Of a stretch of 64,000 bases of DNA, positions 50,969 through 62,717 are shown in pieces. Every line of letters starts with the position of its first letter. Within the stretch, counting starts at the first letter, position 1. A program made the position numbers and the translations under genes. The DNA is from Pseudonocardiales bacterium (GTDB taxonomy: Bacteria; Actinomycetota; Actinomycetes; Mycobacteriales; Pseudonocardiaceae). Below the pieces are notes generated by a model. It made no database searches and was not told the origin of the DNA. It worked only from the letters and a program-made list of their open reading frames with translations. Location: NCBI GenBank assembly GCA_019247305.1, contig JAFAPC010000191.1, positions 1 through 64,000 on the forward strand, given 5' to 3'.

Positions 50969-52015
50969 ATGAGCACCACGGATGTGCAGACGAAGACCGG
51001 AGGCCGGTCGGTACGGGAGATCCTGGCGTGGAGCCGCGCCATCATCCAGCCCGCGCTGCGCGCGGCTATCGGCATGCTGCCCGCCTCGATGCTGCGTATC
51101 GCGGGTTATCACTTTGGTTGGTGGAACGAGCACGGGCACCGGGAGACGGCTCACGGCGGCAAAGCGATCCGGCCCACGCTGGTGCTGCTGAGCGCCCAGG
51201 CCGTCGGCGGACTACCGGCCACAGCGGTGCCGGCCGCGGTGGCGGTGGAGTTGGTGCACAACTTCTCGCTGCTGCACGACGACGTGATGGACGCTGACCC
51301 CACCCGCCGTCACCGGCCCACGGCGTGGCGTGTCTTCGGGGTCAACTCAGCGATCCTGGCCGGGGACGCGCTGCTGACGCTGGCCCTGGACGTGCTCGCC
51401 GCCAGCGCGCACCCGGCCGCCACCGCCGGGATCCGGATGCTCAGCGCCGCGGTCCAGAATCTGCTGGACGGCCAGAGCGCGGACCTGGCCTTGGCGCACC
51501 GCGCCCAGGCCGAGGTGGCGCCATGCCTGCGGATGGCCGAGAACAAGACCGCCGCCCTGATGGGATGCGCCTGCGCCCTGGGCGCCTCCTTCGGTGGTGG
51601 CAGCCACGAGCAGCTCCAGCACCTGCGCGCTTTCGGTACCCACCTGGGCGTGGCGTTCCAACACGTGGACGATCTGCTGGGCATCTGGGGAGACCCCGCC
51701 GTGACCGGCAAGCCGGTCTACTCAGACCTGCGCAGCCGCAAGAAGTCCCTCCCCGTGGTGGCCGCCTTGACCTCCACCACCCCGGCCGGGCGCGACTTGG
51801 CCGCGCTATACCACCGGGCGGCTCCGCTCTCTGAGACCGAGGCGGCCCGCGCCGCAGAACTGATCGACACCGCCGGTGGACGCGCCTGGAGCCAATCCCA
51901 GGCTGAGGAGCTGCTGGCGCAGGCGCTGCGTGAGCTCCAGTCAGCCCACCCCACGCAGCGATCCGCCGAGGAACTGAACGCGCTCGCCCGCCTGGTTACC
52001 CACCGTGACCACTGA
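50969..52015 (+). CDS. Polyprenyl (geranylgeranyl-type) diphosphate synthase
   Basis: A 348-residue trans-isoprenyl diphosphate synthase. [14 protein letters not shown] at 63-76, first Asp-rich motif [10 protein letters not shown] (DDVMD at 104-108) and second motif [12 protein letters not shown] (234-242) are intact, so chain elongation should work. Product length is not certain; FPP to GGPP is likely. The N-terminal [13 protein letters not shown] ... [14 protein letters not shown] resembles the prenyl transferases annotated as family 2 encapsulin cargo, though the shell gene is not in the window and the N-terminal tail is short. GGGGAGAAGG precedes the ATG. First gene of the isoprenoid/halogenase cluster. 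Confidence 0.92.
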
Positions 52016-52043
52016 GTCTAGCCACCTCCCGGAGGCACCCCAG

Positions 52044-53003
52044 ATGTCTGTCACCGCGCGCAACCCCGCTGGAGTCCGCACCGTCCTGCTGGCCTCCCCA
52101 CGGTCGTTCTGCGCTGGGGTGGAGCGCGCCATCGCGATCGTGGAGCACCTCCTCGACCACCGGGACGGCCCGGTCTACGTGCGCAAGCAGATCGTGCACA
52201 ACACCCACGTGGTCGCTGATCTCCAAGCCCGCGGCGCGGTGTTCGTTGAGGAACTAGACGCCGTTCCGGATGGGGCCACCGTGGTGTTCTCCGCGCACGG
52301 GGTGTCCCCCGCCGTGCGCACCAAGGCGGCCGACCGGGGACTGGACGTGATCGACGCGACCTGCCCCCTTGTGACCAAAGTCCACACCGAAGCCCGCCGG
52401 TTCGCCGCCCGGGGCGACACCGTGATCCTGATCGGCCACGCTGGGCACGAAGAAGTCGAGGGCACCCTGGGTGAGGCCCCGGACCAAACGATCCTGCTGC
52501 AGACCGCCGAGGACGTCGCAGACCTGCACGTCGCCGACCCGACACGGGTGTCCTACCTCACCCAAACCACCCTCGCCGTCGACGAAACCGCTGAGATCAT
52601 CCACGCACTCCAGTCCCGGTTCCCCGCGCTGCAAGGACCGGCGTCCGACGACATCTGTTACGCCACGACCAACCGCCAGCACGCCCTCACCGCGATCGCC
52701 GAGGAATCAGATCTGGTCCTCGTCGTCGGCTCGACGAACTCCTCCAACTCACTGCGACTGGTGGAGCTCGCTCGTCGCCACGGCACTCCCAGCTACCTCA
52801 TCGACGATCCCACCGACATCCACCCCGAATGGCTCCAGGGGGCTCGCGTCATCGGGCTGACCGCCGGCGCCTCAGCCCCACCCAGACTGGTCAACGCGGT
52901 CATCGCCGCCCTAGCCGAACTCGGACCACTCACCGTGGTTGAACACGAAACCACCCGCGAGACCGTCCACTTCGCCCTGCCCACCCCGGTGCGGCAGTCG
53001 TGA
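52044..53003 (+). CDS. ispH: 4-hydroxy-3-methylbut-2-enyl diphosphate reductase (IspH/LytB)
   Basis: A 319-residue iron-sulfur enzyme, last step of the MEP pathway: HMBPP to IPP and DMAPP. The three cluster cysteines are in [24 protein letters not shown] and [13 protein letters not shown] in IVHNTHVV and [11 protein letters not shown] are the substrate-site motifs. The ATG at 52044 with GGAGG eight bases upstream is preferred over the GTG at 52005 that would overlap the prenyl synthase. Its position within the cluster suggests a dedicated second copy boosting precursor supply; the housekeeping copy would be elsewhere. Confidence 0.96.
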
Positions 53004-53064
53004 GCCGGCTCGGCCGCATCACCGGCCCCACCGCGACGCTGACCGCCCCGGCCAAGGAGATCTG

Positions 53065-54192
53065 ATGGCCCCTGTCGAACTGGGCATCCCGGCACCGCCG
53101 ACGTCACCGATCCCGGCGCGCCGGGCCTCCCGCCAGATCATGGTCGGGACCGTGCCCGTGGGTGGCGGCGCGCCCGTCTCGGTGCAGTCCATGACCACCA
53201 CCCGCACCGCCGACATCGACGCCACCCTGCAACAGATCGCCGAACTCACCGCAGCGGGATGCGAGATCGTGCGAGTCGCGGTTCCCACCCACGACGACGC
53301 CGACGCGCTGCCCGCCATCGCCGCCACATCGCCGATCCCGGTGATCGCCGATATTCACTTCCAACCCCGCTATGTTTTCGCCGCTATCGACGCCGGCTGC
53401 GCCGCGGTCCGCGTCAACCCCGGCAACATCAAAAAGTTCGACGACAAAACCAAAGACATCGCCGCCGCCGCCCGTGCGGCCCGCGTGCCGATCCGCATCG
53501 GCGTCAACGCCGGCTCCCTCGACCCCCGGCTGCTGGCCACACACGGCCACGCCAGCGCCGAGGCTCTCGTGGAATCCGCATTGTGGGAATGCTCCCTGTT
53601 CGAAGAGCACGGATTCCGCGACATCAAGCTCTCCGTCAAACACCACGATCCCCTCATCATGATCAGCGCCTACCGGAAGCTGGCTCAGCGCTGCGACTAC
53701 CCCTTGCACCTGGGTGTCACCGAAGCCGGACCACTCCTGCCCGGCACCGTCAAATCCGCCGTCGCCTTCGGCATCCTGCTCGCCGAAGGAATCGGCGACA
53801 CCATCCGGGTGTCGCTGTCCGCCCCACCGGTCGAGGAAGTCAAGGTCGGCCACCAGATCCTGCAATCTCTCGGCCTGCGACCCCGCCGTCTGGAGATCGT
53901 GTCCTGCCCTGGCTGCGGACGCGCCCAAGTCGACGTCCACACCTTGGCCGAGCAGGTCAGCGCCGCCTTCGAGGACTTCCCCATCCCGCTGCGCATTGCC
54001 GTCATGGGCTGTGTGGTCAACGGCCCCGGCGAAGCCCGGGAAGCCGACCTCGGCGTCTCCGCCGGCAACGGCAAAGGCCAAATCTTCGTCCACGGCACAG
54101 TGATCGCAACCGTCCCCGAACACCAGATCGTCGAGCGTCTCAGGGAAGAAGCGCTGCAGCTCACCAAAGGTCTAAGGGAAGCGACATCATGA
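53065..54192 (+). CDS. ispG: 4-hydroxy-3-methylbut-2-en-1-yl diphosphate synthase (IspG/GcpE)
   Basis: A 375-residue iron-sulfur enzyme of the MEP pathway (MEcPP to HMBPP). TIM-barrel motifs: [65 protein letters not shown]. The cluster domain has [11 protein letters not shown] and [16 protein letters not shown] with the three Cys. AAGGAGA four bases before the ATG at 53065 decides the start. Its stop overlaps the start of the isoprenoid-synthase-like gene (ATGA), tying precursor formation to that enzyme. Confidence 0.96.
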
Positions 54193-55280
54193 CGATACCT
54201 ACGGCGCTGACGCAAAAAAACCTCGACCTTACCGGAGAGCGACGACGACCCGAGTCCTGGGAAAGCGGATCGACGGTGCCAAGGGCGGCCGCAGACCGTG
54301 TGCAGTGGCCCGCGCCGGAACGGCTAACTCTGTCGGCGCTCGGTTCGTTGGCGTTCGGTAAGGTGCGGTTGGCTGCGGAGCATCGTCCGTTGCGGGACTG
54401 GCTCAACCGGCGAGTGCTGGTCTTCTGCGACCGGATGCCGGCGGCGTTGCGGGATAGCGCGTTGCTCGCTGTCCAAGCCCATCTGGCGCGGTATCGGGCC
54501 GGTCATGTCGCGGCGTTCTACGACAAGTATTACCCGCCCGCGTGGACGGTGATCCCCTTTCTCGCGAGCAGTCGCGACGAGGTGGCTCCCGGTCAGGTGC
54601 ACGATGCCCTGGGTGCGCAGGCGGCCGCCATGTTCCTGCATCTGCTCGATGACCATCTCACGGACGGCGACATCCCGGTCGACAACCTCTTCCTGCAACT
54701 CAGGACCGAGGTGTGGGGCGAATTCCAGGATGGGTTGGCACGGTTGGCCGGCTCGGACCAGGAAGCGAACCAGACGGTCGAATCGCTAGTGAACTTGTAC
54801 TTCTCCCATATCCACCGTCCTCCCGAGCGCCCCGACCTCGCCGCCTACGAGACGGTGTTTCTGGGACAGTCCGCGACATCACTGATCGCCCCGTTGCTCA
54901 TCGCGGCACAAGCCGGATACGACACCGAGCAGCGTCAACTCATTCGCTCAATGTATGAGGAATTCTGCCTGGCCTGGCGGATTCTCGACGATCTCCGGGA
55001 CGCCGCCGTCGACGCGGCTGCAGACCAGGCCACCGCTGTGTTTCATCTGCTGCCGATCGAAAGCCGCTGGGTATGGCACGACGTGGCTATGAACCCGTCC
55101 GACGGCGACCGACGCAACGCGTTGCTCGACGTCCTCCGCTGCGCCGCCTACCCGGCTGCGGTCCAGGCCATCCATACCCATGTGACCACCGCTGCGCGCG
55201 TGGCCGACGAACTGAACCTGCCCGGACTCAGGGGCCAATACCACGCTCTCGCGCACCCCTTGAAGGAGGTTACGCCATGA
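54189..55280 (+). CDS. Class I isoprenoid-synthase-fold enzyme of uncertain reaction
   Basis: A 363-residue all-helical protein. The long ORF-track N-terminus is a shadow of ispG; the ATG at 54189 overlaps the ispG stop. After about 45 variable residues, helices carry [15 protein letters not shown] (Asp-rich motif near 154-161) and [19 protein letters not shown] (DDLRD at 267-271). Paired Asp motifs on facing helices are the mark of trans-isoprenyl diphosphate synthases and class I terpene synthases, but spacing and flanks are unusual and no NSE triad is seen. It could condense, cyclise or transfer a prenyl group. NCBI-style naming would be class 1 isoprenoid biosynthesis enzyme. Coupled at both ends to ispG and the Nif11-like peptide. 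Confidence 0.75.
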
Positions 55281-55483
55281 AGACCTACCGCGATTTCATC
55301 TCTGACATTGTCGATGACACCAGCCTGTATGAGGAGTTGTGCCAGGCCGTCCCCTTCTCCGAACAGGCACAGCTGAACGACTGGTTCGCTACCCGCGGAT
55401 ACCAGCTGAACAGCACCGACGTTGAAGTTCTCTTCGCCAACCAGGAGGAGGTGGCAGGCAGCGATGAGCAAGTCAACTACTGA
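55277..55483 (+). CDS. Nif11-leader-like small protein (possible RiPP precursor)
   Basis: A 68-residue acidic protein with a strong AAGGAGGT six bases before its ATG; the start overlaps the previous stop (ATGA). The sequence follows the Nif11 leader pattern: FISDIVDDTSLYEELCQAV (F..xI..D..L...L..A), then WFATRGYQLNSTDVEVLF (G-Y-x-L-x-x-x-D/E-V). The last ten residues (AGSDEQVNY after EEV) would be the only possible core; a classic GG/GA cleavage site is not clear, although an AG pair is present. It could be a RiPP precursor with a Tyr-ending core, or a small carrier/recruitment protein built on the leader fold. No LanM, YcaO or peptidase gene is in the cluster. Confidence 0.65.
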   Translation: MKTYRDFISDIVDDTSLYEELCQAVPFSEQAQLNDWFATRGYQLNSTDVEVLFANQEEVAGSDEQVNY

Positions 55484-56270
55484 ACGCACCCCCTTGCTGA
55501 GCCTGCACGGCCTCAATCCCGCCGTCGCCCTCGATCTCGCTCCGGGCTGGCATCCCCAATTTTTTCCGATCTGCTTGAGCCCGTACTGGCAGTCGGTGCC
55601 TTGGGGCGGTGCGAACTGGACGATCGAGGGAACGAGTTTTCTGCTGCTGCCCGCAGCGCAAAAACCCGGTGGTTACTCGGCACGCTTCGACCCGAGTTCC
55701 CCGTTCTTTCAGTGCTTTCTCGGGTTGTACATGATCGCTCCCGTGCAGGGCGAGCGGGTTCCCCTGGACCTCTACTCATCCCTTGTACATTTTGACTACC
55801 TGGCATGGGGCCAGCGGCTCGGCGACCCTGCACCGCGTGGCGATGTGGATATCCGGATCCATCGGGTTGGCGTGGAGAAATGGGCCTACGACTCCACGGC
55901 GGCGTGCCACTTCGATGTCGGTCCGAACAATCCACAACACGGTATGCCACCCTTCTTGACCGTGCCACGGTGGCCCATCGCGCCCGGTGCCGCGCACTGG
56001 AGCGATGTGGTCGACAGCTACGACGAGCGGATCGATCTGGTGCGGGGTCACCTGTGGTACGAAGGCCCCTACCTTGTCTGCAGCTACTTCAGCGGCGCCC
56101 GCTTCACCGACCGCGCCGGGCGCACGATCGACACCCACACGCGCTATCCGCACGTGCTCCAGGGCGAGGAGGAGACGGTGGCGAGTATCCGGGTTTTCGA
56201 CCGTGGGACCGGATACCGCGGTCCCACGCCCTTCGGCTCACTGAACTCCGTAACGGAGAGGAAGCACTGA
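55464..56270 (+). CDS. Unrecognised 268-residue cluster protein
   Basis: Starts at ATG 55464, overlapping the Nif11-like gene by 20 bases with an AGGAGGAGG upstream, and ends in a TGATG overlap with the FAD oxidase. No signal peptide or membrane helix. It is rich in aromatic residues, with Trp/Tyr clusters (SPYWQSVPWGGANWTIEG, HFDYLAWGQRLGD, VRGHLWYEGPYLVCSYFSG) and probably mostly beta. I do not recognise the family. An aromatic-lined pocket would suit a hydrophobic isoprenoid ligand, so a lipocalin-like binding protein or a cyclase is possible; this is speculation from composition and context. Confidence 0.8.
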   Translation: MSKSTTERTPLLSLHGLNPAVALDLAPGWHPQFFPICLSPYWQSVPWGGANWTIEGTSFLLLPAAQKPGGYSARFDPSSPFFQCFLGLYMIAPVQGERVPLDLYSSLVHFDYLAWGQRLGDPAPRGDVDIRIHRVGVEKWAYDSTAACHFDVGPNNPQHGMPPFLTVPRWPIAPGAAHWSDVVDSYDERIDLVRGHLWYEGPYLVCSYFSGARFTDRAGRTIDTHTRYPHVLQGEEETVASIRVFDRGTGYRGPTPFGSLNSVTERKH

Positions 56271-57553
56271 TGGGCGAGGCATTATGCACCGATTTCGGTG
56301 GTGTCAAACGCGCCCAGCCAAATGCGGTGCTGTCCGCTTGCAGCGGGGAAGCCGATCCCGGTGCCCTGATCGCCGCGGCGGGCCAGCATGGCGATCAGGT
56401 GACCCTGCGCGGGGCTGGGCACTCTTGCAACGGTCAGACAGTCACCAACGGATTGCTCCTGGAGAACTTCAGTCCACACGAAGCCGCCGGACCGCACATC
56501 GTCGACGTTGGCGATGGCTACGTGGAGCTCCCAGCGTTCTTGAGTTGGTATGCCGTGGAGCGCGAGCTCAACACCCGCGGACGGGCCGTGCCCGTGCTCA
56601 CCGATTACCTGTACATGTCGGTCGGCGGCACGCTGTCGGTCGGCGGCCTGGGCCTCAACTCGATAGTGCACGGCTTGCAGGTCGATCAGGTCCGCCGCAT
56701 CCGGCTGATCGATGGCCAGGGCACAGCCCGCTGGTGCTCCACGGAGGAACATCCGGAACTTTTCCGTTTCGCCCTCGGCGGCCTCGGCCAGGTGGGGTTC
56801 ATCGACCGCGCGATCCTGCGTACTGTCCCCTATCGGCGGTTCGGCCATCTACACCGGGTGCACCATGCGTCGGCGGCCGAGATGGCCCGGTTCGCCGTCC
56901 GGTTGGCGGCAGAGCCGGACGTGGACCACTACAACGCGAATATCAATGGGAATCAGTTCTACTCTGAGATTGGCTGGTTCCACGCAGAGGAGATTTCTCC
57001 CTGCCAGACTCCCGACTGCACCATTATCCCCGACCTGCCTTTTTTCTTGCACGAGCGCCGAGAACGCTGGGTCGCCGCCTTCCCTGGACGCGTACGGATA
57101 TGGACGGACTATGTCCTGCCTCCCGACCGCTTCGGCACGTTCATCGACGCCATCGAAAATCTTCGCCAGCAACCACCGCTGTCCGGCTCGCTCAAAGGTA
57201 TGTACGTGCTGCTGATTCGGCGCCCCACCGGCTTCACCCACTTCGCGTTTGGCCCCGCCCCGTATGACTCGGTCGTGCTGGGCCTCGGCGTCTACGCCAT
57301 GGTCGACCAGCGCGACGCTCGCACGATTGTCCGCACCCGGCAGGCCCTGCGTTCTCTGCTGGAACTCTGCTGCGAGTTGGGCGGCAGGCCGTACCTGTAC
57401 GGAATGAACTCCCTGGACGGCACGCTGCTGAGGAACCTGTACGGGTCCGACCTCGACCAACTGGCAGTCCTGCGACACGCATACGGCTTAGAGCACGTCA
57501 ACGCGCACGTCCTGCATCCCACACCCACTACGGCAGTGACAATACCGTCATGA
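56270..57553 (+). CDS. FAD-linked oxidase (cytokinin dehydrogenase/BBE-like)
   Basis: A 427-residue flavoprotein of the PCMH/VAO superfamily. The FAD-binding half has VTLRGAGHSCNGQTVTNGLL and the glycine-rich MSVGGTLSVGGLGLNSIVHGLQVDQV. The His of GAGHSCNGQ is the likely covalent FAD attachment site, as in cytokinin dehydrogenase (single covalent bond). The substrate half (from about 230) has aromatic segments and ends with YLYGMNSLDGTLLRNLYG. The reaction is likely oxidation of an alcohol, amine or C-H of the cluster product. Start overlaps the previous stop; a hairpin follows the gene. Confidence 0.88.
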   Translation: MGEALCTDFGGVKRAQPNAVLSACSGEADPGALIAAAGQHGDQVTLRGAGHSCNGQTVTNGLLLENFSPHEAAGPHIVDVGDGYVELPAFLSWYAVERELNTRGRAVPVLTDYLYMSVGGTLSVGGLGLNSIVHGLQVDQVRRIRLIDGQGTARWCSTEEHPELFRFALGGLGQVGFIDRAILRTVPYRRFGHLHRVHHASAAEMARFAVRLAAEPDVDHYNANINGNQFYSEIGWFHAEEISPCQTPDCTIIPDLPFFLHERRERWVAAFPGRVRIWTDYVLPPDRFGTFIDAIENLRQQPPLSGSLKGMYVLLIRRPTGFTHFAFGPAPYDSVVLGLGVYAMVDQRDARTIVRTRQALRSLLELCCELGGRPYLYGMNSLDGTLLRNLYGSDLDQLAVLRHAYGLEHVNAHVLHPTPTTAVTIPS

Positions 57554-57570
57554 CCCATGAACAATGAGCC

Positions 57571-57595
57571 CCGTTCTGCTACGGGGCCAGAACGG
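57571..57595 (+). terminator. Hairpin before the halogenase pair
   Basis: CCGTTCTG and CAGAACGG pair perfectly over 8 bases with a 9-base loop, 18 bases after the oxidase stop. An alternative 6-base stem (GCCCCG/CGGGGC) overlaps it, so two conformers are possible. It could lower read-through into the halogenases or act as an attenuator. A degraded relative sits before the second halogenase. Confidence 0.4.
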
Positions 57596-57622
57596 CACGA
57601 ATAGAGAGACCAGGAGAATGAG

Positions 57623-59368
57623 ATGAATGAGAAGGTGCATGACGTAGCGATCATCGGTGGAGGTATTGGCGGCTCGATCACGGCTGCGATTCTCGCGCGT
57701 AACGGTGTCGATGTATTGCTGGCCGAGGGAACTCCACATCCTCGTTTCACGATCGGGGAATCGACCACTCCAGAGACCTCTCTTAGTTTACGGCTCTTGG
57801 CAACCCGTTACGGGGTGCCCGAACTAGGAAACCTGAGCACTTACTCCAATGTTCAAAAGATAGCGCCTACTTCGGGTGTCAAACGAAACTTCTGTTATGT
57901 CGGTCATCACATCGGGGAGAGGGCTCGACCACATGAATGCGCACAGTTTCCCACCTTTCCCCAGCCACTGGGTCCGGATATGCACTATTTCCGCCAAGAT
58001 ATCGACGCTTACCTCTTCCAGGTGGCAGTCAAATACGGCGCCACAGCAAAAAACGGCACCTTGATTGAGGATGTTGAATTTCACGACGATCTCGTGCAGC
58101 TCCGTGCCGCGGATGGGTCTACCTTCCTTGCTCGATATGTCGTCGATGCCGGTGGGCGCAACGCCCTGATCCCAACAAAACTCGGGTTACGCGACGCCGA
58201 GCCGAGATTCCAAACCAAGACACGTACCATATTCACGCATATGTTAGGGGTACTACCATGGGAAGCGGTAGGACCAAAGAAGGAAGACCACGGAATGCCT
58301 TCGCCGTTTAGCGAAGGCACCCTGCACCACTTCTTCAAAGGCGGCTGGATATGGATAATCCCGTTTAATAACCACCCACAGTCAGTGAACCCATTGTGTA
58401 GCATCGGTATCAATCTGGATATCGACTCGTACCCGATTCACCCAGGAATATCCGCCGAGCAAGAATTCTGGGGGATCATCAAAAATTACCCCTCCATCGC
58501 GGACCAGCTCCGGCAGGCGCGCGCGGTACGACCCTTTGTGTCCACCGGAAGGACACAATTCTCAAGCAAAAAAATTGTGGGGACCAGATTCTGCCTTCTG
58601 CCCCATGCTGCAGAATTCGTCGACCCACTCTACTCAACTGGCATGGCAATTACAGTGAATTGCATCAACGCTCTCGCGCACCGACTGATCGAGGCTGCAC
58701 GTTCCGGCGACTACAACACGGAACGGTTCCGCTACATCGAAGAATGGACCAAAAAATCGTTCGACGTCGCGGACGATACCATCTGGTGCACATACGAAAG
58801 CTTTTCTGACTTCCGACTATTCAACGCCGTACTCAAAATGTTCGCTATTCAGCAATTCTACACCACGACCAGTCCGCTAGAAACGTGGGCTCGCTACCTG
58901 CGCACCGGCAACAGAGAAGTCTTTTCGCGAATGGAAGAACACCCTCGAAGAGGTGCTCAATGTGCCGACTTTCCAGAAATTCGAGAAATGGTGACCAGTA
59001 TAACAAAAGAGATTTCCACATATAAATTTGGAGATCAAGATTGCGCGGATTTAACGAGCGCAATCTACCGGCACATTGCGACGTGCAGCGACCTAGTCCC
59101 GCCGTTTTTGAAAATACTCGATCCAGATTCCAGACTTCCCATCGGCCGGGTGACAATTCCACAAATTTTTCGCTTCCTGTTCTGGTTTAACTTTCAAGCA
59201 CCGAACCACGTTAGAAAACAGCATGTGACCATGCAAGCCATGCCTCTCATAATTAAGGAGGTGGTTCAGTCTTGGGGACACCAAGTTCAGCAGGCCGGCA
59301 ACGCTATTTGGCCCCATTTGCGGGATTACGTAGCGACCTGGAATCGCGACTGGAAACGTAGCATGTAA
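57623..59368 (+). CDS. Flavin-dependent halogenase (intact copy)
   Basis: A 581-residue enzyme of the tryptophan-halogenase superfamily. GGGIGGS at 12-18 binds FAD; IGESTTPE is the next FAD motif. WIWIIP at 242-247 is the WxWxIP halogenase signature that excludes monooxygenases. Lys 87 in SGVKRNF is a good candidate for the catalytic Lys that carries the haloamine or hypohalous acid, and FVDPLYSTGM is conserved. Sequence type is nearer to phenol/pyrrole-type halogenases than to free-Trp enzymes. AGGAGA precedes the ATG. Base composition is clearly more AT-rich than its neighbours, suggesting transfer. It needs reduced FAD, probably from the flavin reductase at 61566. Confidence 0.9.
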   Translation: MNEKVHDVAIIGGGIGGSITAAILARNGVDVLLAEGTPHPRFTIGESTTPETSLSLRLLATRYGVPELGNLSTYSNVQKIAPTSGVKRNFCYVGHHIGERARPHECAQFPTFPQPLGPDMHYFRQDIDAYLFQVAVKYGATAKNGTLIEDVEFHDDLVQLRAADGSTFLARYVVDAGGRNALIPTKLGLRDAEPRFQTKTRTIFTHMLGVLPWEAVGPKKEDHGMPSPFSEGTLHHFFKGGWIWIIPFNNHPQSVNPLCSIGINLDIDSYPIHPGISAEQEFWGIIKNYPSIADQLRQARAVRPFVSTGRTQFSSKKIVGTRFCLLPHAAEFVDPLYSTGMAITVNCINALAHRLIEAARSGDYNTERFRYIEEWTKKSFDVADDTIWCTYESFSDFRLFNAVLKMFAIQQFYTTTSPLETWARYLRTGNREVFSRMEEHPRRGAQCADFPEIREMVTSITKEISTYKFGDQDCADLTSAIYRHIATCSDLVPPFLKILDPDSRLPIGRVTIPQIFRFLFWFNFQAPNHVRKQHVTMQAMPLIIKEVVQSWGHQVQQAGNAIWPHLRDYVATWNRDWKRSM

Positions 59369-59460
59369 CGTCTCCATCATTTGGTAAAAAATGATAAGCC
59401 CTGCACTGCGACGGGGCTGGAGCGACGCTAGTGGGCGAAATAGAAGAATAGAGGAGCGAG

Positions 59461-61310
59461 ATGAATGAGAAGGTGCATGACGTAGCGATCATCGGTGGTG
59501 GAATTGGTGGCTCGATCATGGCCGCGATCCTCGCGGGTAATGGTGTCGATGTACTATTGGCCGAGGGAACTCCACATCCTCGGTTCACGATTGGCGAATC
59601 GACTACTCCAGAAACATCCATTAGTCTACGACTTCTGGCAGCCCGTTACGGCGTGCCCGAACTAGCATACCTGGAGGCTTATGCAAAACTCGGAGACGAG
59701 CTCTGTGATCATGTCGCTGACCTGCGGGGACGCCAATTTTTGATCATGTTCTCAAGGGGTTTTGCATAAGCCTCCTGAGCTCTTATTCCAGTGTTCAAAA
59801 GATAGCGCCGACCTCGGGTATCAAACGAAACTTCGGTTACGTCGGTCATCGTGTTGGGGAGAAGACTCGACCACAGGAATGCGCGCAGCTGTTCACCGTT
59901 CCCCAGCCACTGGGTCCGGATATGCACTACTTCCGGCAGGATATCGACGCTTACCTCTTCCAGGTAGCGATCAAATACGGCGCCACAGCAAAAAATGGCG
60001 TTTTGATTGAGGATGTTGAATTTTGCGACGATCTTATGCGACTGCGCGCCGCAGATGGGTCTACCTTCCTTGCTCGATACGTCGTCGATGCCGGTGGACG
60101 CAACGCCCTGATCCCCGAAAAACTCAGGTTGCGCGACACCGAACCAAGATTTCAAACCAAGACACGTACTATATTCGCGCATATGTTAGGCGTGCTTCCA
60201 TGGGATGAGTTGGGACCGAGGAAGGAAGAACATGAAATGCCTTCGCCATTTAGCCAAGGAACCCTACACCACTTTTTTAGAGGCGGCTGGATATGGGTGA
60301 TCCCGTTTAATAACCACCCACAGTCAGTGAACCCATTATGCAGCGTCGGCATCAACCTAGATATCAACTTGTATCCGATTCGTCCAGGAATATCCGCCGA
60401 GCACGAGTTCTGGGAGATTATCGAAAGTTACCCGTCCATTGCAGCCCACCTGCGGCGGGCGCGCGCGATCCGGCCCTTTGTGTCCACTGGGAGGACGCAA
60501 TTCTCGAACAAACAGATCGTAGGGACCAGATTCTGTCTTCTGCCGCATGCCGCAGAGTTCGTCGACCCACTATACTCAACCGGCATGGCAATTACGGTGA
60601 ACTGTATCAACACTCTCGCATGCCGACTGATCGAGGCTGCGCACTCCGGAGACTACGACACAGAGCGGTTCAGGTACATCGAAGAATGGACCAAGAAATC
60701 ATTCGACGTCGCGGACGATGTCATCTGGTGCACATACGAAAGTTTTTCCGATTTTCGACTATTCAACGCCGCATTCAGAATGTATATAATACAGTCATTC
60801 TACAGCACGGTCAGTCCAGCGGAGACATGGGCTCGTTACCTACACACCGGCAGCAAAGAAGTCTTTTTAAGAATGGAAGAACATCCTCGAAGAGGTACCC
60901 AGTGTGCCGATTTTCCAGAAATTCGAGAAATGGTGACAAATATAGCAAAGGAGCTTTCCTCATATAAGTCTGGAGATCAGGACTGCATGAATGCAACGAA
61001 CGCGATCTACCGGCACATAGCAGCACACAGTGACTTATTTCCGCCATTCTGGAAAATGCTCGATCCAGATTCCAGAATTCCCATGGGACGGCTGACTTTT
61101 CCACAATTTTTCCGCATCCTTATCTGGTTTAACTTTCAAGCTCAGCGCCATGTCAGAAAACAGCACTTGACTATGCAAATTGTACCACTCATCATTAAGG
61201 AGGCAGGCCAGTCTTGGGGGCGTCAAGTACAACAGGCCAGCAACGCTATTTGGCCCCATCTGCGGGACTACGTAGCAACCTGGAACCGCGATTGGAAACG
61301 TAGCATGTAA
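59461..61310 (+). pseudogene. Second flavin-dependent halogenase, disrupted by a small insertion
   Basis: A tandem copy of the preceding halogenase with nearly the same N-terminus (IGGGIGGSIMAAIL) and C-terminus (RDWKRSM). The ORF track shows it as two ORFs (59461-59769 and 59922-61310). The break is caused by an inserted element at 59673-59775 that adds a net 104 bases and shifts the frame by two. Removing those bases restores one open frame, reading ELAYL then SSYSSVQKIAPTSGIKRNF. The second part retains WIWVIP and DPLYSTGM. The gene was therefore intact until recently. The C-terminal fragment alone lacks the FAD-binding GxGxxG and should be inactive. Confidence 0.93.
59673..59775. mobile_element. 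103-bp MITE-like element with perfect 16-bp terminal inverted repeats
   Basis: The element begins GGAGGCTTATGCAAAA (59673-59688) and ends TTTTGCATAAGCCTCC (59760-59775), an exact inverted repeat of 16 bases. The intact neighbouring halogenase lacks it at the homologous codon. Comparing the two copies, 104 bases were gained, so 1 base (T) may be duplicated with a 103-bp element, or 3 bases (CCT) with a 101-bp element. It encodes no protein by itself and would need a transposase in trans from a parent element elsewhere in the genome. Confidence 0.92.
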
Positions 61311-61565
61311 CGTCTTCATTATTCGACAACAGCGTCGACCTAATATGGAAATATCGCCTTGAAACGCCTCAGGACCATGAATACATGACGCACATGGAGA
61401 ATGCCTAGCTTATATCCGGTGCTGCACATCTCCGGTGGCGGGCTGGGATGGTGGTGTTCGGAGTCGCGGCGATGAGGCGCTGGGAAGCTCGAGTGGTGTG
61501 AGAGAAGGCTACCTATGGTGTGGTCCCGGTAGAGTACAGGAATTCTGACTAACCAAGGAGCGTTA

Positions 61566-62138
61566 GTGAGTGCGATGAACATGCCGATGAGAGCAGCGTC
61601 TGCGGCGGGGGCGTCGGCCTTTTCGGTCGATGCCCCCGGATTCCGCTCGTTCTTCCGGCACTATGCGAGCGGAGTCTCCGTGATCACGGCATGCACGCCA
61701 GACGGCCCACGAGGGCTCACCGCCACCTCGGTCTGTGCCCTATCGCTAGACCCGCCGCTCCTGTTGGTGTGCATCACCCGAAACTCCCGCACCGGTATGG
61801 CTATCGCGCAGAGCGGGCTTTTTGCTGTCCATCTACTTCGCGCCGATCAAAGTTGGCTTTGCCGGAGATTCAGCGTCCTGGAAAGAGATGGTTCCCGTAA
61901 GTTTGAGAGACTGGAAATGATCAACAACTCACCCGTTCCGCTCATCGCAAATACATTTTCCTGGGTGGTGTGCGAACGTTGGGCCGAGTACGATGGAGGC
62001 GACCACACCATTATCGTGGGCCGACTGCTAGAATCCGGCCGTCCACAAGAAGAATCCGTCCCATTGATCTGGTTCGCGGGACGATCTTGCTATCCGGAGT
62101 CCGTTCACAACAGGCCGGACTCCTGGCCGGTGGTGTGA
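61566..62138 (+). CDS. Flavin reductase (partner of the halogenase)
   Basis: A 190-residue protein of the flavin reductase-like (HpaC/FRP) family. AAGGAG five bases before the GTG at 61566 sets the start. Family motifs: FFRHYASGVSVITACTPDGP, GLTATSVCALSLDPPLLLVCI, NSRTGMAIAQSGLFAVHLL and GGDHTIIVGRLLES. It uses NAD(P)H to make FADH2 for the halogenase. There are 255 bases between the halogenase relic and this gene with no feature I can define, so it may have its own promoter. The next gene, an SDR relic, follows directly in the same frame. Confidence 0.92.
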   Translation: MSAMNMPMRAASAAGASAFSVDAPGFRSFFRHYASGVSVITACTPDGPRGLTATSVCALSLDPPLLLVCITRNSRTGMAIAQSGLFAVHLLRADQSWLCRRFSVLERDGSRKFERLEMINNSPVPLIANTFSWVVCERWAEYDGGDHTIIVGRLLESGRPQEESVPLIWFAGRSCYPESVHNRPDSWPVV

Positions 62139-62141
62139 TCC

Positions 62142-62717
62142 AAACTCCGCGAACACCGACACCAAAAGAAGAGCGGGAAAGCAGCTCTGATCATTGGGGC
62201 CGCATCTGGGATAGGAGCGGCGTCAGCCCAGATGTTCGCCCGGCACGGAGCCAACGTCGTGCTCGCCGACATCGACGAAGGTGGCGGCAAGGACGTGGCC
62301 GAGAAAGTGGACGAGGCGGGTGGACAAGCGGTGTTCGTCCACGCCGACGTGACCTCGGCTCGGGACGTGGCGGGGACGATCGGGATCTCGATGGGCCTGG
62401 CAGCGTACGTGGCGGCCAAACACGGCGTCATCGGGCTCACCAGGGCCGCCGCGCTCGAGTACGCGACCAGGGGGGTCAGGATCAACGCCCTGTGCCCGGG
62501 CGTCGTCCGCACCGCGATGCTGGACGACGCCATCAGACGGGGAATCCTCACCGAAGAGGAGGCCGGTGCGGCAACTCCCGTGCGTCGCCTCGCCGACCCG
62601 GCCGAGATCGCCCAGGCAGCGATCTGGCTCTGTTCGGATGCGGCGTCCTTCGTCACAGGTCACGCCATGGCGTGTGACGGCGGCCTCACCGCAGGCATCC
62701 CCACCCGCCCAAGCTGA
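62142..62717 (+). pseudogene. Short-chain dehydrogenase relic (no start, internal deletion)
   Basis: The ORF track gives only 62232-62717, but homology extends further left in the same frame: GKAALIIGAASGIGAASAQM from 62175, the normal SDR cofactor motif. Between the flavin reductase stop and that motif there is no ATG, GTG or TTG. After HADVTSARDVAGTIGI the sequence jumps straight to GLAAYVAAKHGVIGLTRAAA: the central stretch with NNAG and the catalytic Ser is missing, while YxxxK and the C-terminus (CDGGLTAG) remain. The deletion is in frame, roughly 70-80 residues. It is unlikely to be an active enzyme. Confidence 0.85.

What the first reader, a model, noticed from the sequence alone, without database searches (positions are those of the whole stretch)
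59673..59775. 103-bp element with perfect 16-bp TIRs has knocked out the second halogenase
Seen: GGAGGCTTATGCAAAA at one end and its exact reverse complement at the other. The intact sister gene provides the empty-site sequence and shows a net gain of 104 bases, which explains the two-base frame shift exactly. The rest of the gene is still open, so insertion is recent.
Basis: seen in the sequence. Interest (0 to 1): 0.75.

Follow-up and report, generated by a model that had tools for sequence, protein, structure and literature searches.

The report
Tiny jumping element broke spare halogenase
A 101-base mobile DNA element without genes of its own, with 22 full or partial matches in this actinobacterial genome, has jumped into the second of two tandem halogenase genes and broken it; this is a clear, recent example of a well-known kind of mutation.

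Summary
The element is 101 bp (59674-59774), not 103. It has 16-bp perfect terminal inverted repeats (GAGGCTTATGCAAAAC) and a 3-bp target duplication, CTG.

The element is a type II MITE. The genome holds 22 matches, 10 of them full-length and identical. Of 15 copies with both flanks, 13 carry matching 3-bp duplications. Pooled sites, including relatives, fit a palindromic AC-NWN-GT target.

Full-length IS5-type insertion sequences (895-937 bp) with the same ends occur in this genome and its genus, so the MITE is probably moved in trans by them. One copy sits inside an IS66-family element that multiplied afterwards.

The halogenase is cut just before its conserved KRNF stretch. Translation ends at a TAA in the element's right end after 102 aa. 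The remaining 512 codons are open, with no clear excess of amino-acid changes, so the insertion is recent. The intact sister resembles CtcP and PltM.

This is a new member of a known kind, with a published precedent (microcystin genes in Anabaena). Only a paralogous empty site was available.

The parts
59674..59774 (.). 101-bp MITE
   Evidence: 22 matches in the genome, 10 full-length and identical
59674..59689 (+). left terminal inverted repeat GAGGCTTATGCAAAAC
   Evidence: 16-bp perfect match to the right end
59759..59774 (-). right terminal inverted repeat; holds the TAA stop (59767-59769) that ends the broken frame
59671..59673 (.). target site duplication CTG, left copy
59775..59777 (.). 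target site duplication CTG, right copy
59461..59769 (+). truncated reading frame: about 70 halogenase codons plus MITE codons, 102 aa
59772..61310 (+). rest of halogenase gene 2, 512 codons still open, first in-frame start at 59922
57623..59368 (+). intact sister halogenase, 581 aa, paralogous empty site
   Evidence: Trp_halogenase; CtcP and PltM relatives

Best explanation
A type II MITE of an IS5-type family inserted into halogenase gene 2. An IS5-like DDE transposase encoded elsewhere in the genome binds the 16-bp ends of the 101-bp element and moves it in trans into a site of the form AC-NWN-GT with a 3-bp stagger; gap repair duplicates CTG. The net +104 shifts the frame by two. Ribosomes read about 70 halogenase codons, then MITE codons, and stop at a TAA inside the right terminal repeat. 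No start codon re-enters the frame before 59922, so the N-terminal FAD-binding part and the rest can no longer be made as one protein and the gene is dead. Shown here: element, ends, duplication, copy number, related full-length IS, frame consequence. Inferred: the transposase acting in trans, loss of enzyme activity, retention of halogenation by the sister gene.
For: 10 full-length identical copies, three identical copies cut by contig ends, and diverged copies at 75-96%. 13 of 15 own-genome copies with both flanks have matching 3-bp duplications. In a pool of 24 sites selected for a matching duplication (own genome, genus relatives, Rathayibacter, three IS) there is C before the triplet in 18, G after it in 17, and A/T at its centre in 22. 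Full-length IS with the same ends: 937 bp in this genome (frame broken), 931 bp in G002 with TTA/TTA, 895 bp in G007 with an intact 255-aa transposase and CAT/CAT. Transposases match DDE_Tnp_4 and HTH_Tnp_4 and NCBIfam IS5 models below cut-off. A second filled/empty comparison: IS66 copy with ATT[MITE]ATTGTGTGA against a related IS66 end at C2 with ATTGTGTGA. Between the halogenases dN is about 0.10 and dS about 0.57 in the 3' part; polarised amino-acid changes are 15 on the intact and 20 on the broken copy.
Against: No true empty allele of this gene is available: no other genome of the genus has it, and the empty site is a paralogue at 82-91% amino-acid identity. The MITE interior shows no homology to the IS interiors, so the IS-MITE link rests on ends and duplication length.
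Confidence: 0.93

Rival explanations
1. Assembly artefact: the 104 bases were joined in wrongly from another copy of the repeat in a draft genome with 6.87% estimated contamination.
For: The genome is a 206-contig draft and many contigs end inside these repeats; two other copies (C164, C115:4268) have mismatched flanking triplets.
Against: Both flanks belong to one gene collinear with the sister, no base is missing, and the CTG duplication matches. A chimera between two MITE copies would join unrelated flanks.
Confidence: 0.03
2. The element is an internally deleted copy of an IS present in this genome (type I MITE) rather than an independent type II family.
For: Same ends and duplication length; the right end keeps a GFA-stop coding tail like the IS transposases.
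Against: Interior no more similar to the seven IS sequences or fragments than shuffled sequence; the MITE query finds no IS; MITE relatives keep the same length across the genus.
Confidence: 0.12
3. The insert is domesticated: a hairpin that regulates the operon or makes a functional split product, not a plain knock-out.
For: Strong predicted RNA hairpin, -47 kcal/mol, z -6; long open downstream frame.
Against: No terminator-like or extra promoter-like site above chance, no Rfam match, covariation term about zero; the first start re-entering the frame is 59922, past the FAD site and KRNF stretch.
Confidence: 0.03

Closest known systems
Type II prokaryotic MITEs (review PMC10969869)
   Same: Short, no ORF of its own, terminal inverted repeats, target duplication, sequence shared with autonomous IS only in the ends, multiple copies
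   Different: No difference of kind found; the 101-bp sequence itself is not named in any source read
IS5 family (IS1031/IS427/ISL2-like groups), e.g. IS1237 and ISLxx6 of Leifsonia (PMC2516522)
   Same: DDE transposase matching IS5 models, about 0.9 kb, three-base insertion site as reported for ISLxx6
   Different: Below the curated NCBIfam IS5 cut-offs (55-64 against 140 bits), so the subgroup stays open; the MITE carries no transposase
MITE inactivation of the microcystin (mcy) cluster in Baltic Anabaena (Fewer et al. 2011, as cited in PMC10969869)
   Same: A MITE naturally breaks a natural-product biosynthesis gene
   Different: Cyanobacterium, other MITE; here the broken gene has an intact tandem sister
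89-90-bp elements in Rathayibacter iranicus and R. tanaceti
   Same: Same 16-bp ends; 3-bp duplications at most sites
   Different: Different interiors and length; a distant actinobacterial genus
Flavin-dependent halogenases CtcP (tetracycline 7-halogenase) and PltM
   Same: The intact sister aligns over 500 residues with CtcP (E 2.8e-117) and about 400 with PltM
   Different: Substrate unknown here

Membership tests
MITE (type II) | Short element without transposase, flanked by terminal inverted repeats | tested here: met
   101 bp, 16-bp perfect TIR, no room for a transposase
MITE (type II) | Target site duplication | tested here: met
   3 bp, CTG here; matching at 13 of 15 own-genome copies with both flanks
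MITE (type II) | Multiple dispersed copies | tested here: met
   22 matches, 10 full-length identical
MITE (type II) | Sequence shared with an autonomous IS confined to the ends | tested here: met
   Same ends on full-length IS; interior not above shuffled controls
MITE (type II) | Mobilised in trans by a related transposase | not testable with these tools
   Inferred from shared ends and 3-bp duplication
IS5 family (the partner IS) | DDE transposase of the IS5 type | tested here: inconclusive
   Pfam DDE_Tnp_4 over cut-off; NCBIfam IS5 models hit at E 1e-15 to 1e-17 but below their cut-off
IS5 family (the partner IS) | Length under about 1 kb and short target duplication | tested here: met
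   895, 931 and 937 bp; 3-bp duplications CAT and TTA in the two relatives; the 937-bp copy in this genome has mismatched flanks
Flavin-dependent halogenase (sister gene) | Trp_halogenase domain, FAD-binding GxGxxG, WxWxIP motif | tested here: met
   Pfam; GGGIGG and WIWIIP in the translated sequence

The most novel reading that the evidence does not exclude
The 101-bp family is a long-lived MITE lineage of this genus, with a partly conserved interior across species, that has recently spread by two routes: in trans by IS5-type transposases, and as a passenger inside an IS66-family element that it entered and that then multiplied. The halogenase knock-out is one product of that burst.
Probability: 0.6. 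Interest if true: 0.3.

Novelty: new member of a known kind. Interest (0 to 1): 0.22.

Why it matters
It is a clean example of how natural-product genes are lost: one of two tandem halogenases is broken by a MITE while the other stays intact. The identical copies, target consensus and related IS make the MITE a usable marker and a testable trans-mobilisation system in a little-studied actinobacterial genus. For cluster annotation it means gene 2 should be called a pseudogene, and product predictions should assume one halogenase.

Tried and rejected
Homologues of the halogenase in genome contigs: nothing confirmed. An IS sharing the MITE interior: none found. MITE elsewhere in the order: only two weak partial matches among 397 genomes beyond the own genome. 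A true empty allele in relatives: the halogenase pair is absent from the other ten genomes of the genus. Terminator or RNA-family reading: no support. A paper naming this element: not found.

Full report
What is there. At 59674-59774 lies a 101-bp element with 16-bp perfect terminal inverted repeats GAGGCTTATGCAAAAC. It is flanked by CTG on both sides (59671-59673 and 59775-59777). With the duplication, 101 + 3 = 104, exactly the net gain over the sister gene, and 104 mod 3 = 2.

It is a dispersed family. The 101-bp query gives 22 matches in the genome: 10 full-length and 100% identical, three identical copies cut by contig ends, and a diverged set at 75-96%. Of 15 own-genome copies with both flanks available, 13 have matching 3-bp duplications of differing sequence (ATT, TAA, ATG, CTG, TCT, CTT, CAT, AAA, AAG, ATC); two (C164, C115:4268) do not match. 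Seven identical copies at independent sites have perfect duplications. A pool of 24 sites with matching duplications (own genome, genus relatives, Rathayibacter, three IS) shows a palindromic target: C before the triplet in 18, G after it in 17, and A/T at its centre in 22. The site in the halogenase, AC-CTG-AG, fits in part.

The likely source of transposase. Full-length insertion sequences with the same ends exist: 937 bp in this genome at C142:145-1081 (reading frame broken, flanking triplets mismatched), 931 bp in relative G002 with TTA duplication, and 895 bp in relative G007 with CAT duplication and an intact 255-aa transposase. Their transposases carry DDE_Tnp_4 and HTH_Tnp_4 and hit NCBIfam IS5 models below the curated cut-off. 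A further 951-bp IS with variant ends (GTAGATTATTCAAAA) and CAG duplication is at C16. Many contig ends stop 130-146 bp inside IS copies with these ends, so the multi-copy IS is collapsed in this draft. The interior of the MITE has no detectable homology to any of these IS. In the terms of the review PMC10969869 it is a type II MITE, sharing only the ends.

A second proof of mobility. Six copies of the MITE share the same left 45 bp, GCAAACATTCAGCC...GGTGGCATT. This is the end of a separate element, C191:1-1836, whose transposase is of the IS66 family (PF03050, E 2e-32; NCBIfam IS66 over cut-off). The MITE sits 45 bp from its tip with ATT on both sides, and a related IS66 end at C2 reads GGTGGCATTGTGTGA without the insert. 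The IS66 element therefore received the MITE and then multiplied with it.

What it does to the gene. The sister (57623-59368, 581 aa) is a flavin-dependent halogenase: Pfam Trp_halogenase, with tetracycline 7-halogenase CtcP and PltM as the best solved relatives, and a 53% identical homologue next to a flavin reductase on a Streptomyces plasmid. In the second gene translation runs through about 70 halogenase codons and then MITE codons to a TAA within the right terminal repeat (ORF 59461-59769, 102 aa). The remaining 512 codons are open, but the first in-frame start is 59922. The cut lies just upstream of the KRNF stretch, which by position may hold the catalytic lysine of this enzyme class (from my own knowledge, not tested). 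The product should be inactive; this is inference.

Age. The two halogenases differ by dN about 0.10 and dS about 0.57 over the 3' part, and changes polarised with the Streptomyces homologue number 15 on the intact and 20 on the broken copy. So there is no clear relaxation, and there are no further stops or frameshifts. With identical MITE copies elsewhere, the insertion is recent relative to the gene duplication; no absolute date is possible.

Other hits and range. Another copy (C81, 96% identical) separates the Walker A half of an AAA ATPase domain from the rest, and the C115:4268 copy abuts a helix-turn-helix gene. MITE matches occur in five of ten other genomes of the genus at 72-93% identity, but only weak fragments turn up among 397 genomes of the order. 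Rathayibacter iranicus and R. tanaceti carry 89-90-bp elements with the same ends and mostly matching 3-bp duplications, so the end sequence is more widespread than this MITE.

Verdict. The finding is correct in substance and ordinary in kind. MITEs breaking biosynthetic genes are known, for example the microcystin cluster in Anabaena (cited in PMC10969869). The remaining gaps are raw-read confirmation, a true empty allele, and a transposition assay.

Noticed in passing
G000 C191:1-1836 (L061, L180), also C4, C56, C60, C136, C151: The same MITE is nested 45 bp inside one end of an IS66-family element, and the compound then spread to at least six sites.
   Followed up: yes
window 50969-62138: Cluster with polyprenyl synthetase, LytB/IspH, GcpE/IspG, FAD-binding oxidase, two halogenases and a flavin reductase; GC falls from about 69% to 58% in the last 8 kb, which suggests acquired DNA, possibly for a halogenated terpenoid.
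   Followed up: partly
window 62160-62717: Short-chain dehydrogenase reading frame that looks incomplete (161-aa ORF, strongest Pfam match to profile positions 139-236 of 236); possibly a second decayed gene near the cluster.
   Followed up: no
L119-L122 (Rathayibacter iranicus, R. tanaceti): 89-90-bp elements with the same 16-bp ends but different interiors in a distant actinobacterial genus.
   Followed up: partly
L074 (G000 C81:19114-19214): A 96% identical MITE copy splits an AAA ATPase gene between its Walker A half and the rest of the domain.
   Followed up: partly
G005 (L111, L114): MITE copies in this relative carry GCAGAAC in both ends, so both ends changed together, perhaps tracking a changed transposase.
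   Followed up: no
G000 C16 (L086:1347-2297): 951-bp IS with divergent ends GTAGATTATTCAAAA, 3-bp CAG duplication and an open transposase frame; a sister lineage of the partner IS.
   Followed up: partly
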